Source: Candidatus Woesearchaeota archaeon | GTDB taxonomy: Archaea; Nanobdellota; Nanobdellia; Woesearchaeales; UBA583 | Direction of reading: 5' to 3' | Assembly (NCBI GenBank): GCA_027858315.1 | Contig: JAQICV010000065.1 | Span: 1 to 42,237 of the forward strand | Length of the DNA: 42,237 nt | Shown: piece after piece, positions 8,772-42,237 of the stretch | Position numbering within the stretch: the stretch's first letter is position 1 | How the letters are laid out: every line of letters starts with the position of its first letter | Program-made: the position numbers and the translations under genes | The notes under the pieces: generated by a model | What the model was told of the DNA's origin: nothing | Database searches by the model: none | What the model saw: the letters and a program-made list of their open reading frames with translations, nothing else

Positions 8772-10553
8772 ATGAAAGATAGTTTTTTTACAAATATTAC
8801 TGACATTTTAAAGAGTGTTAGATTTTGGATATTGGTTTTTTTTGTTCTTATTAGTGTTTTAACGATTAATTTTAATTTTAAAGATCAAGGAGTTGTAATC
8901 AATGGAGTTACCGTTGGTAGTTTAGCAGATAATTCTGGGTTTGAATTTAATTCAAAAGCAAATCCTAGAGATTTTGAAAGAGTACTTAGTGTTAATTCTA
9001 ATCAAATTATAATTGTTGATGATTATTTTAATGCACTTAATGGTGTTTTAGAAGGAGATTTGGTTGATATTGTGACTGATCAGGGTGAGTATAATTTTCT
9101 TTTGTCAGATTTAGGAAATAGAAGTGTTGCAAATTATATTGGTTTGAGTGTTAAAGAAGGTGCCATGTCTAATTTAAGATTAGGTATTGAACTTGAAGGA
9201 GGATCAAGATTAATTCTAAAACCTGTAGATGAAATTTCTGAAGAGCAGTTTGATTTACTTGTTTCTAATTTGAAGAATAGATTAGATATATTTGGTGCAT
9301 CCGGAACTAAGGTCAATAAGCTTGTTGATTCTTTTAGTGGAGAAAAATTTGTTATTGTTGAGAGTATTTCAACTAATAAAAATGATATTTTTGATTTGAT
9401 TTCTAAACAAGGTGAATTTGATGCTAAAGTTGGAAATGTTACAGTTTTTACTGGAGAAAATGTTTTAATGGTGAAAGATGATCCTTCCCATTTAAGATAT
9501 GAGCTTGTTTCTGATGATGAGGATGGTTATGTTTACAAAGTTAGTTTTTCTTTAGAGATTGATGAAGAAGGAACAAATAATTTTTTTGATAAGACAAGTC
9601 AACTTGATGTTGTTTCAGGTAGTTATCTTAGTGAAGAAGTTGCATTTTTTTTAGATGGACAAGAGATTACTTCGCTTAGTATTTCTTCTGCATTTAAAAC
9701 TCAAAAGATTTCAACACCTCAAATTTCAGTTGTTGGAGATCCTGGTTCTACACAAGAAAAAGCAATAGATAATGCTAATAAAGAAAAAGATTTACTTAAG
9801 ACTCTTCTTTTGACTAAATCTCTTCCAACAGAATTAAATGTCGAACAAAGTTATTCTGTTTCAAGTTCTACTGGTAGCAGTTTTTTGAAAAATTCAATTA
9901 TTGTTGGAGTTCTTGCAGTTCTTTTAGTTTCTTCTGTTGTTGCTTTAAGGTATAGGCATATCGGAATTTTTATTGGAATTATGATTGCTCTTGTTGGAGA
10001 AGTTATTATTGTATTTGGTGCGTCTGCACTTTTAGGTCTGAGTATTGATTTAGTTGCAATTGGAGGACTTATTGCTGCAATTGGAACTGGAGTTGATGAT
10101 CAAATTATTATTACTGATGAGTATTTTAGAGATAGAGATAAGAAATTAACAAGTAAAACTAGAGTTAAGAATGCATTTTATATTATTATGATTGCATATT
10201 TTACAACTATTGCAGCAATGGCTCCGTTTTTACTTGCAGCTGGTTCAAAGATTGTAATTTATATGGTTATTACTATACTTAACATTTTGATTAGTGTATT
10301 ATTTTTGGTTAGATTAAATAGTAAATTTAAATATAAGTTACTTATGATTGTTGCATTTTGGACTTTTACTTTTACCATCACTCCACTTTTCTTTAGTCCT
10401 GTTTTATTATTACTTAAAGGGTTTGCATTTGTGATCATTATTGGTGTGACTATTGGTGTGTTTGTTACAAGGCCTGCTTATGCTACAATGCTTAGAATTA
10501 TTATGACTTCTAGAGAAGAAAGGAAAGAAGAAGCACAAGAAGACGAAGATTAA
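8772..10553 (+). CDS. secD: Protein-export membrane protein SecD
   Basis: 593 residues from the ATG at 8772; an in-frame TTG at 8757 lies between the TATA box and this ATG and is unlikely to be used. The first helix is near residues 15-36. A PDZ-like segment follows (GVTVGSLADNSGF ... GDLVDIVT, about 45-105). LRLGIELEGGSRLILKP near 137-153 is the archaeal SecD signature. The large periplasmic-type P1 region comes next, and the last 210 residues hold about five helices including GLIAAIGTGVDDQIIITDE, the SecD counterpart of the SecF motif. The tail is acidic. It acts with SecF in preprotein export and consistently accompanies the several exported proteins here. Confidence 0.92.
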   Translation: MKDSFFTNITDILKSVRFWILVFFVLISVLTINFNFKDQGVVINGVTVGSLADNSGFEFNSKANPRDFERVLSVNSNQIIIVDDYFNALNGVLEGDLVDIVTDQGEYNFLLSDLGNRSVANYIGLSVKEGAMSNLRLGIELEGGSRLILKPVDEISEEQFDLLVSNLKNRLDIFGASGTKVNKLVDSFSGEKFVIVESISTNKNDIFDLISKQGEFDAKVGNVTVFTGENVLMVKDDPSHLRYELVSDDEDGYVYKVSFSLEIDEEGTNNFFDKTSQLDVVSGSYLSEEVAFFLDGQEITSLSISSAFKTQKISTPQISVVGDPGSTQEKAIDNANKEKDLLKTLLLTKSLPTELNVEQSYSVSSSTGSSFLKNSIIVGVLAVLLVSSVVALRYRHIGIFIGIMIALVGEVIIVFGASALLGLSIDLVAIGGLIAAIGTGVDDQIIITDEYFRDRDKKLTSKTRVKNAFYIIMIAYFTTIAAMAPFLLAAGSKIVIYMVITILNILISVLFLVRLNSKFKYKLLMIVAFWTFTFTITPLFFSPVLLLLKGFAFVIIIGVTIGVFVTRPAYATMLRIIMTSREERKEEAQEDED

Positions 10554-40120: not shown

Positions 40121-40167
40121 GGAAGAAGAATTTTTAAATCTTGAACTGCTTTAAAAATTCTTCTTCC
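40121..40167. repeat. 18-bp perfect inverted repeat at a convergent gene junction
   Basis: GGAAGAAGAATTTTTAAA (40121-40138) and TTTAAAAATTCTTCTTCC (40150-40167) around an 11-nt loop. The right arm is the 3' end of the dph5 coding region (codons for EEEFLK), so it folds in the mRNA of both strands. It may block read-through between the convergent genes. Confidence 0.6.
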
Positions 40168-40949
40168 ATTTCGTGCATGTCTCCAGGAATTATTATACAA
40201 AGTGGTTCTTTTAATATTTCTTTTTTATCGTATTCAATTAATTCTTTAATTGTTCCATATAATATTATTTCATCCTCAAAGCCTAATCTAGAGCATATTA
40301 TTGCATCATCAATCTCATCTATTACTTGGGATTCTTTCTCTTCAATTTCTTCGTTCTCAAGCATCAATTTAGGTATATCTAGTAGAAACTGTAGCGCTTT
40401 GTTTGCTTCGAGGTATTTATCGTGTCCTTTATATGCGATATCATTTGAAGGATTTAAGTCAAGAAGAAATAATGAGTGTGCGCCAATTCTGTGATTGTCT
40501 ATAAATACTAGATATGGAGTTCTTGGCATAAATTTTTCTGAAAAGAAGGGGATTGAAGTTATTTTTCCAAATTTGTAAAATTGAAGTCCAGTTCTTGTTA
40601 TATAGTTTCCAATTGATACATTGTTGTAAACTTTTGTTTTAATATTCATGTCCTTTGCTCTTAGAAGTAAATCTGTATGAGTTGTTGCAATTAGTGGGTC
40701 GCCTAATATTAGAAGAGCAATGTCTGTTTTTTTTGCAGGTTCAAGAATCTGTTCTTCAATTTGACTCTCAATTAAGTCTCTATCTGCAATAGTTAGTTCT
40801 TTTCCTAAATATTTTGATAAGTCTTCAAATGTTGTTTGATAAAATGAAGTGTAATATTCTAGAAATACTTTTTCTGATTTTTTTATGGCTTCTAGCATTT
40901 CTGGATTGATATGCTCTTTTTTTGCGCCAATTCCAATTAAGTGTAACAT
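40134..40949 (-). CDS. dph5: Diphthine synthase
   Basis: 271 residues. Tetrapyrrole methylase-fold enzyme that trimethylates the amino-carboxypropyl histidine of elongation factor 2 on the way to diphthamide, a modification absent from bacteria. Start MLHLIGIGAKKEHINPEMLEAIKK, LEYYTSF, LLILGDPLIATTHTDLLLRA near 80-99 and YNNVSIGNYITRTGLQFYKFGK near 108-130 are the SAM-binding and substrate loops of Dph5. The start codon lies within a 14-bp direct repeat (see repeat copy B). Confidence 0.93.
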   Translation of the reverse strand: MLHLIGIGAKKEHINPEMLEAIKKSEKVFLEYYTSFYQTTFEDLSKYLGKELTIADRDLIESQIEEQILEPAKKTDIALLILGDPLIATTHTDLLLRAKDMNIKTKVYNNVSIGNYITRTGLQFYKFGKITSIPFFSEKFMPRTPYLVFIDNHRIGAHSLFLLDLNPSNDIAYKGHDKYLEANKALQFLLDIPKLMLENEEIEEKESQVIDEIDDAIICSRLGFEDEIILYGTIKELIEYDKKEILKEPLCIIIPGDMHEMEEEFLKQFKI

Positions 40950-41035: not shown

Positions 41036-41144
41036 TATATTTGGAAGTAATTGTTGTTTTATAAGATTTGTTTTTTATGTGTGCGAGAGTAGTAACATTT
41101 TATGTGTGTTTATAAAGTGGTTTTTATTAGCTAATTTTAGATTT

Positions 41145-42026
41145 ATGGGCAAAAATAATGTTCGAGAAGTAATAGGGATTACATATAAGTTAGGTTTAGT
41201 GTTACAAAAACACTTTCCTAATTTGGGAATGGGGTATAAGGGTAGCTTATTTGATGTAGCAAAAAATTTACAAGAAAGGGTTGGAGATAAGGTTGCATTT
41301 AGAGTTGATGGTAAGTCAATAACTTATGGTGAAATTAATTTGAGCATTTTGAAAACTGGAGTTAGAAATTCGTTAGGTGGTGTTGAAGAAAATGAGTTTC
41401 ATGATGGGTATTCGGGATTATTGGGAGATTCTTATTCTGAAAAGAAAGGTAATGGTGGGATTACGACTAGAGATAGAGGTGTTGGGTGTTTTGCTATTTC
41501 GATTGAAGAAAAGAAGAAATTAGGTAAGAAGAATATTCATAAATTACATAAAATTAATGGCACTACTGTTTGGCAACCATGGGAGAGAGTTAGTTTTTTT
41601 AAATATTTTAAAGATCCAGAGTTTCAATATGGATCAAGACCAAATTATGCTTTAATTGCAGAACAATTAAATGATGAGTTTCATGAAGGATTTCCGACTC
41701 GAAGTTCAAAGTCTTTAGAGATAGAACTGCAAAGGATAAAAAATAAATTAGGTATTGAGAAGAAAAAATTGATAAATTGGAATAAGGAGTTAGTTTATTC
41801 TAGTCAAAATGATGTGATGCCACTTATTGATTTTGTTGTTTATTGTTCTAAAGCAAGTAAATTTAAACAAAAATATCGAGATGGTTTTAGAGTCAAAACT
41901 AAAATTCTTGCAAATTATTTAAATGAAAAATTTTCAAGGGAAGATTTTACTACATACAATGTTGGAAAAGCTTTGAAAAGATATGATTCTACTTCAGAGA
42001 ATTTAGAAGAAAGGATTGCTTCATAA
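41145..42026 (+). CDS. Putative DNA-binding protein with SANT/HTH-like segments
   Basis: 293 residues from the ATG at 41145; an earlier ATG at 41079 falls in the repeat region. The product is basic. Residues 164-203 (YGSRPNYALIAEQLNDEF ... SLEIELQRIK) have the spacing of SANT/Myb-like helix-turn-helix repeats, and residues 255-285 (VKTKILANYLNEKFSREDF, VGKALKRY) look like a second copy. The N-terminal half is alpha/beta with no known motif. DNA binding is inferred from this pattern. TTTATAAA (41109-41116) is 32.5 nt upstream. Confidence 0.55.
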   Translation: MGKNNVREVIGITYKLGLVLQKHFPNLGMGYKGSLFDVAKNLQERVGDKVAFRVDGKSITYGEINLSILKTGVRNSLGGVEENEFHDGYSGLLGDSYSEKKGNGGITTRDRGVGCFAISIEEKKKLGKKNIHKLHKINGTTVWQPWERVSFFKYFKDPEFQYGSRPNYALIAEQLNDEFHEGFPTRSSKSLEIELQRIKNKLGIEKKKLINWNKELVYSSQNDVMPLIDFVVYCSKASKFKQKYRDGFRVKTKILANYLNEKFSREDFTTYNVGKALKRYDSTSENLEERIAS

Positions 42027-42058: not shown

Positions 42059-42108
42059 CGGCAGAACTGGGATTTGAACCCAGAATTCCATAGGAACTAG
42101 ATTTCAAG
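42059..42108 (-). tRNA. 3' half of a type II (serine-like) tRNA; 5' half absent
   Basis: Reading the minus strand: a possible anticodon loop CTTGAAA (42102-42108) with TGA at 42104-42106; a 3' anticodon stem TCTAG; a 13-nt variable arm (TTCC-TAT-GGAA stem); T arm CTGGG-TTCAAAT-CCCAG; acceptor 3' strand TTCTGCC; discriminator G. G73, long variable arm and UGA anticodon agree with tRNA-Ser. No GGCAGAA acceptor 5' strand or D arm is present up to the window edge. The amino-acid identity and the exact half boundary are inferences. Confidence 0.65.
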
Positions 42109-42161
42109 TGGTAAGCGTAATTCCGTATAATGGTATTGTGCTTTATCTTAATCTAGTTCCT
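42092..42161 (-). repeat. 12-bp inverted repeat spanning the tRNA half
   Basis: On the minus strand AGGAACTAGATT (42161-42150) pairs perfectly with AATCTAGTTCCT (42103-42092). The 3' arm includes the tRNA positions 37-43 and the start of the variable arm; the 5' arm is leader sequence. The 46-nt loop ends with the putative anticodon. Confidence 0.55.
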
Positions 42162-42225
42162 TTTTGTTATCGAAAATCAAGTTTGTAAGTTTGATTTCAT
42201 TACATTAAATACAAATCTCCATTTA

Positions 42226-42233
42226 TTTATAAA
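42226..42233 (-). promoter_or_regulatory. TATA box upstream of the tRNA half
   Basis: TTTATAAA on the minus strand at 42226-42233. With the usual spacing, transcription would start near 42203, giving an approximately 95-nt leader before the tRNA half. This argues that the half is transcribed on its own. Confidence 0.5.
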
Positions 42234-42237
42234 TTTA

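What the first reader, a model, noticed from the sequence alone, without database searches (positions are those of the whole stretch)
42059..42233. Stand-alone 3' half of a tRNA with its own TATA box: candidate trans-spliced tRNA-Ser
Seen: T arm, type II variable arm, acceptor 3' strand, discriminator G and a possible UGA anticodon loop, but no D arm or 5' acceptor strand upstream; a TATA box sits about 26 nt before an expected start near 42203. Known: Nanoarchaeum equitans and some Thermoproteota make tRNAs from separately transcribed halves that carry complementary intervening sequences and are joined after cleavage at a bulge-helix-bulge. Inference: the leader at about 42109-42149 would pair with the tail of a 5' half elsewhere. 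Alternatives are a long intron reaching past the window edge, or a tRNA remnant left by an integration.
Basis: partly seen in the sequence, partly recalled or inferred. Interest (0 to 1): 0.85.

Follow-up and report, generated by a model that had tools for sequence, protein, structure and literature searches.

The report
Host tRNA split by tRNA-carrying element
The stand-alone tRNA half is the right-hand scar of a mobile DNA element that inserted into the anticodon loop of a serine tRNA gene in a DPANN archaeon, cut the gene in two and apparently pays for the damage by carrying its own complete copy of that tRNA, a trick described so far only for some bacterial viruses.

Summary
In detail: 42059-42108 (-) is the 3' half of a tRNA-Ser(UGA), from anticodon loop to discriminator G. 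The trans-splicing reading fails. A matching 5' half lies on contig C49 (73998-74036), and the two halves join into a perfect tRNA-Ser(UGA). But the sequences next to the halves are not complementary (duplex no better than shuffled); they carry a 15-nt direct repeat instead. A complete tRNA-Ser(UGA) lies 79 nt after the 5' half, followed by mobile-element genes. A relative (G002) has the uninterrupted locus: PrsW-like gene, intact tRNA-Ser(UGA), one gene, DPH5. So an element integrated at the anticodon loop (9-bp shared core), destroyed the host tRNA and carries a complete replacement. The same genome shows this twice: tRNA-Ser(GCU) is split in parallel (C9/C92, 7-bp core), again with a complete tRNA-Ser(GCU) 77 nt inside the element, which continues on C97 with an SSV1-like integrase. 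This matches 'tRNA-dependent lysogeny' of actinobacteriophages (2024); I found no archaeal report, and the 2021 review says archaeal integrations restore the tRNA. Limits: draft assembly, UGA element not closed, dependence on the element's tRNA inferred.

The parts
42059..42108 (-). 3' half of the host tRNA-Ser(UGA): anticodon loop to discriminator G (attR side)
   Evidence: joins with C49:73998-74036 into a perfect tRNA-Ser(UGA) by ARAGORN
42102..42108 (-). 7-nt anticodon loop CTTGAAA, the core of the crossover; shared core with the 5' half is ACTTGAAAT (9 bp)
   Evidence: comparison of C49 and C65 junctions
42109..42237 (-). right end of the integrated element, cut by the contig end
   Evidence: lies between the two halves of a gene that is intact in relatives; no complementarity to the 5'-half trailer
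42131..42145 (-). [quoted passage not shown] candidate integrase arm site
   Evidence: blastn E 7e-6; arm-site role is inference
   Evidence: local alignment score 106 against 47.5 +/- 8.8 for shuffled, p <= 0.001
42225..42233 (-).
41079..42026 (+). host gene next to the 3' half, 315 aa, no family found
   Evidence: not homologous to the gene at the same place in G002
40134..40949 (-). host gene DPH5 (diphthine synthase; name by my reading of the sequence), the syntenic anchor on this side
   Evidence: 67-68% identity to G002, G004, G005; lies beyond an intact tRNA-Ser(UGA) in the same order and orientation in G002 and G005

Best explanation
An integrative mobile element recombined with the host's only tRNA-Ser(UGA) gene at the 7-nt anticodon loop. 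Because its attachment site shares just 9 bp with the tRNA, integration did not rebuild the gene: the 5' half stayed on C49 (73998-74036), the 3' half on the window contig (42059-42108). The element carries a complete tRNA-Ser(UGA) 79 nt inside its left end (C49:74116-74197), which takes over the lost function. A sister element did the same to tRNA-Ser(GCU) (5' half C9:169-207, complete copy C9:285-366, 3' half C92:398-447); it encodes an archaeal SSV1-like tyrosine integrase. Shown by sequence: both split genes, the cores, the replacement tRNAs, the empty site of the UGA case in relatives, the integrase of the GCU element. Inferred: that this integrase family made both insertions, that the replacement tRNAs are expressed (perhaps by read-through from the host tRNA promoter, since they lie just behind the 5' half), and that the host now depends on them.
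For: Halves: 5' and 3' halves join into a tRNA-Ser(UGA) with a full acceptor stem (one G-U) and anticodon stem; same for GCU. Empty site: G002:C86 has PrsW-like gene / intact tRNA-Ser(UGA) / one gene / DPH5 in the order and orientation of C49-left plus the window; G005:C36 has tRNA-Ser(UGA) / gene / DPH5; G004:C4 has the PrsW-like gene next to tRNA-Ser(UGA). Insert: complete tRNA-Ser behind each 5' half, then the same gene set (343-aa HTH protein 86% identical, further shared ORFs) on C49 and C9. That protein is absent from 59 relatives apart from weak matches to its HTH region. C9 overlaps C97 by 22 nt, end to start, joining an ORF in frame. C97 has PF16795 archaeal phage integrase (E 2e-23; PDB 3uxu/3vcf/4dks E 4e-11 to 5e-10), a second tyrosine recombinase and a Type III-like restriction-modification pair. 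Direct repeat at both element ends. The upstream GCU 5' half has the D-stem of other Ser tRNAs while the element copy has a compensatory change. No other intact UGA or GCU Ser tRNA was seen in the assembly.
Against: The UGA element is not closed: C49 and C65 both end inside it, so its own integrase and size are unknown. No empty site was found for the GCU case, and there the complete copy and the C92 half share 51 bp, so a canonical integration plus an unrelated 5' duplication is not excluded for GCU alone. The 315-aa gene next to the 3' half differs from the gene at that place in G002. The genome is a 105-contig draft, 95% complete, 4% contaminated, so another intact tRNA-Ser(UGA) could be missing. 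No expression or read-mapping data.
Confidence: 0.87

Rival explanations
1. Trans-spliced (split) tRNA: the 5' half on C49 and the 3' half on C65 are transcribed separately, pair through complementary flanks and are joined after cleavage at a bulge-helix-bulge.
For: Two separate halves exist and would give a perfect tRNA-Ser(UGA).
Against: Flanks are not complementary beyond chance and share a direct repeat instead. A complete tRNA-Ser(UGA) sits 79 nt behind the 5' half. Insertion with an empty site explains both halves. The leader is predicted to fold onto the 3' half itself.
Confidence: 0.03
2. Canonical archaeal tRNA integration: the complete tRNA at C49:74116 (or C9:285) is the rebuilt gene at attL, the stand-alone 3' half is attR, and the extra 5' half upstream is an unrelated partial duplication.
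For: Usual outcome for SSV-type and pNOB8-type integrases (PMC8371274). In the GCU case the complete copy and the C92 half are identical over 51 bp.
Against: For UGA the 3' half differs clearly from the 3' part of the complete copy (whole genes 78% identical) and pairs with the upstream 5' half. The upstream 5' half sits where relatives have the intact tRNA, next to the PrsW-like gene. Both loci show the same layout: 5' half, about 77-79 nt, complete tRNA, same genes.
Confidence: 0.06
3. Ordinary decayed tRNA-Ser pseudogene: a full-length copy whose 5' half has drifted.
For: RF00005 places a weak full-length match at 42142-42059 (16.1 bits), and the 28 nt upstream show 19 identities to a tRNA-Ser 5' half (p 0.007).
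Against: The inverted match of the same stretch is far stronger (score 106 against 59; the D arm is nearly palindromic). The true 5' half exists on C49, unmutated, next to the orthologous upstream gene.
Confidence: 0.02
4. Assembly artefact: chimeric contigs at tRNA-Ser repeats.
For: Both halves lie near contig ends in a fragmented draft. C35 shows a second continuation of the GCU left junction.
Against: Breakpoints fall exactly at the anticodon loop in two different tRNAs, the element ends share a 15-nt repeat, and the flanks match the synteny of relatives.
Confidence: 0.04

Closest known systems
tRNA-dependent lysogeny of actinobacteriophages (Fionnbharth, LeBron, Gaia and others; PMC10865867)
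   Different: Archaeal (DPANN) host; SSV1-like integrase family PF16795; replacement tRNA only 77-79 nt from the left core; two sister elements each matched to a different serine tRNA; dependence not tested experimentally.
SSV-type / pNOB8-type archaeal integrative elements (PMC8371274)
   Same: Integrase family (for the GCU element), tRNA target, anticodon loop as crossover region as for SSV1 integrase.
   Different: Those rebuild an uninterrupted tRNA gene; here neither junction does.
Caldiarchaeum tRNA-Thr(GGU) locus disrupted by a mobile element (PMC3293823)
   Same: tRNA fragment left by an element, proposed as a route to split tRNAs.
   Different: There the element supplies part of the tRNA with an intron; here both host halves survive and the element brings a full gene.
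Split trans-spliced tRNAs of Nanoarchaeum equitans and Thermoproteota (PMC3218864)
   Same: Separate 5' and 3' halves.
   Different: No complementary flanks, no bulge-helix-bulge, complete isoacceptor gene present.
tRNA gene fragments from integration events (PMC9897764)
   Same: Partial tRNA genes as integration scars in archaea.
   Different: Those scars pair with a rebuilt complete gene at the other end.

Membership tests
tRNA-dependent lysogeny | attachment site inside a host tRNA gene | tested here: met
   both junctions at the anticodon loop of tRNA-Ser(UGA); same for GCU
tRNA-dependent lysogeny | short common core so that no functional tRNA is rebuilt | tested here: met
   9 bp (ACTTGAAAT) and 7 bp (CTGCTAA) shared by the two junctions
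tRNA-dependent lysogeny | element carries a complete tRNA of the same isotype | tested here: met
   ARAGORN tRNA-Ser(UGA) C49:74116 and tRNA-Ser(GCU) C9:285, each behind the matching 5' half
tRNA-dependent lysogeny | element-encoded tyrosine integrase | tested here: inconclusive
   met for the GCU element (PF16795 on C97); the UGA element is cut by contig ends
tRNA-dependent lysogeny | disrupted host tRNA otherwise single copy | tested here: met
   no other intact UGA or GCU Ser tRNA found in the assembly; assembly 95% complete
tRNA-dependent lysogeny | lysogen survival needs the element's tRNA; element is a phage | not testable with these tools
   no experiment; whether the element is a virus or a plasmid-like island is not known
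split trans-spliced tRNA | separate 5' and 3' half genes | tested here: met
split trans-spliced tRNA | complementary intervening sequences and bulge-helix-bulge | tested here: not met
   duplex energy no better than shuffled; direct repeat instead
split trans-spliced tRNA | no complete gene for the same isoacceptor | tested here: not met
   complete tRNA-Ser(UGA) at C49:74116
canonical SSV/pNOB8-type tRNA integration | uninterrupted tRNA gene rebuilt at one junction | tested here: not met
   UGA: neither junction is a complete gene, and the complete copy differs from the host halves

The most novel reading that the evidence does not exclude
A family of integrative elements in DPANN archaea makes itself indispensable: each member destroys one essential serine tRNA gene by inserting in its anticodon loop and supplies a complete copy of exactly that tRNA, so that losing the element by anything but precise excision is lethal. 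This would be the first archaeal case of tRNA-dependent integration, using an SSV1-like integrase, with two sister elements matched to UGA and GCU in one cell.
Probability: 0.75. Interest if true: 0.6.

Novelty: new variant of a known kind. Interest (0 to 1): 0.55.

Why it matters
Standard annotation would call this a split tRNA or miss it. It is instead an insertion that breaks an essential tRNA and replaces it, known so far from actinobacteriophages and suspected in one Lactobacillus prophage. Finding it twice in one archaeal genome with an unrelated integrase family suggests that the strategy evolved repeatedly. It also gives a concrete intermediate for the long-debated idea that split tRNAs arise when mobile elements break tRNA genes: here two perfect halves already lie apart, made redundant by a replacement copy.

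Tried and rejected
Trans-splicing: duplex and adjacent-duplex tests against shuffles, negative. Full-length pseudogene: my first reading from the weak Rfam match; dropped when the C49 5' half and the stronger inverted match were found. Search for more members: the 343-aa protein and the integrase in viral contigs and reference genomes gave no relatives; a 14-nt end-repeat search in viral contigs gave only chance-like hits. Neighbours of the HTH homologues in other families: ordinary HTH regulators, no tRNA next to them. Contig-end overlaps for C49, C65, C92, C35: none; only C9 to C97. Empty site for GCU: not found. DPH5 neighbours in three reference MAGs: no tRNA-Ser(UGA) there.

Full report
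What is there. The window is the whole of contig C65 of a 1.77-Mb, 105-contig archaeal draft genome (95% complete, 4% contaminated). Named relatives of its DPH5 gene come from uncultured Woesearchaeota/Nanoarchaeota MAGs, so the host is a DPANN archaeon. On the minus strand, 42108-42059 is the 3' half of a tRNA-Ser(UGA): anticodon loop CTTGAAA, TCTAG, variable arm TTCC-TAT-GGAA, T arm, TTCTGCC and discriminator G. It matches tRNA-Ser genes of relatives at 77-84%. Nothing upstream completes it.

The other half. The genome has a complete tRNA-Ser(UGA) at C49:74116-74197. Upstream of it, at C49:73998-74036, stands a 5' half: GGCAGGATCGCATAATCTGGTATTGCGCTAGACTTGAAA. Joined to the window's 3' half it gives a tRNA-Ser(UGA) that ARAGORN accepts, with a full acceptor stem (one G-U) and anticodon stem. 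The complete copy is a different sequence (78% identical to the joined host gene; the joined gene is 86% and 83% identical to the UGA genes of G003 and G004).

Not trans-splicing. For split tRNAs the tail of the 5' half and the leader of the 3' half must pair. Here the best duplex is -15.1 kcal/mol, against -17.2 +/- 3.1 for shuffled tails; next to the junction -6.0 against -5.2 +/- 1.8. The two flanks share a 15-nt direct repeat instead, TAAAGCACAATACCA. The TATA-like string is at chance level in this AT-rich window. The inverted repeat that looked like a leader is part of a decayed, inverted tRNA-Ser copy at 42124-42163.

An insertion, with its empty site. In G002 the order is PrsW-like gene (-), intact tRNA-Ser(UGA) (+), a 238-aa gene (-), DPH5 (+). 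(PrsW-like and DPH5 are names from my reading of the sequences; homology between the genomes is what was tested.) In our genome C49 has the PrsW-like gene (39-40% identical to the relatives' genes) and then the 5' half; the window, read on the minus strand, has the 3' half, a 315-aa gene (-) and DPH5 (+; 67% identical). G005 has tRNA-Ser(UGA), a gene and DPH5 in the same arrangement, and G004 has the PrsW-like gene next to tRNA-Ser(UGA). Both contigs end on the insert side, so the sequence from C49:74037 to the end of C49, and from C65:42109 to the end of C65, reads as the two ends of one insert at the anticodon loop.

A second, parallel case. C9 has a 5' half of tRNA-Ser(GCU) (169-207), then a complete tRNA-Ser(GCU) (285-366), then the same genes as C49 (343-aa HTH protein, 86% identical). 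C92:398-447 has the matching 3' half. The shared core is CTGCTAA, again the 7-nt anticodon loop. C9 overlaps C97 by 22 nt, end to start, and the overlap joins an ORF in frame. C97 (14 kb) encodes a PF16795 archaeal phage integrase with SSV1-type integrase structures as best PDB matches, a second tyrosine recombinase, a Type III-like methylase and helicase pair, a nuclease and a KAP ATPase.

How it most likely works. Shown: two host Ser tRNA genes split at the anticodon loop, each with a complete tRNA of the same anticodon 77-79 nt inside the insert. Inferred: a tyrosine integrase recombines a short core with the anticodon stem-loop, whose dyad fits its core site; neither junction rebuilds the gene; the carried tRNA replaces it. 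Its place just behind the 5' half would let it ride on the host tRNA promoter. No other intact UGA or GCU Ser tRNA was seen, so the cell should depend on the element.

What is known. This is the logic of tRNA-dependent lysogeny, shown for actinobacteriophages with cores of 8-11 bp (up to 17 bp of identity in LeBron) and suspected for Lactobacillus prophage Lj965 (PMC10865867). The review of archaeal tyrosine recombinases states that integration events restore an uninterrupted tRNA (PMC8371274), and my searches of the paper library showed no archaeal case. The Caldiarchaeum tRNA-Thr locus is the nearest archaeal precedent for disruption (PMC3293823). I therefore rate it a new variant of a known kind.

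Limits. The UGA element is not closed; the GCU case lacks an empty site and, taken alone, could be canonical integration plus a 5' duplication. The second continuation of the GCU left junction on C35 points to variants in the population or to a misjoin. Expression and dependence are untested. An absence of archaeal reports in an open-access library is not proof of absence.

Noticed in passing
L001, L002/L011, L021, L029, L030 (own genome) and L051, L054, L055, L061, L062, L063, L066, L075, L108, L110 (relatives): 15 of 59 tRNA genes have, 55-315 nt downstream, a partial copy of their own 3' end (T loop plus acceptor strand), none in shuffled controls; most are preceded by a small palindrome such as AAAATCTTTGATTTT or GTGAACAAGTTCAC. 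It looks like small palindromic insertions with duplication of the tRNA 3' end; origin unknown.
   Followed up: partly
L056, L059, L061, L064: Some tRNA-Ser genes also have upstream copies of their own 5' end (acceptor strand plus GTCGCATA) followed by a hairpin, matching the tRNA's own acceptor sequence.
   Followed up: partly
G000:C35 (L095) 9487-9607: The last 121 nt repeat the GCU 5' half plus element left end of C9 at 99% identity, then continue into other genes (methylase, Schlafen-type, membrane proteins): a second variant of the junction or a misjoin.
   Followed up: partly
G000:C92:63503-64291 and C74:8391-9047: Two further homologues of the C97 integrase; the C92 one lies next to a tRNA gene cut by the contig end (64318-64380), probably another tRNA-integrated element.
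   Followed up: no
G000:C3:11163-11234 (L014 1501-1573): A Gly-like tRNA with anticodon UCA, and a neighbouring ORF that becomes one long frame if TGA is read as Gly (code 25): probably a contaminating Gracilibacteria/SR1 or phage contig.
   Followed up: partly
C9:1-139 and the ends of C49, C80, C98, C84, C72, C29, C41, C77; also C51:762-900 and C37:39181-39293: A repeat of about 139 bp (91-100% identical) sits at many contig ends and probably caused assembly breaks.
   Followed up: no
L059 1490-1612 (G030), minus strand: A relative's tRNA-Ser appears to hold an intron in the anticodon loop, called only when ARAGORN allows introns.
   Followed up: no
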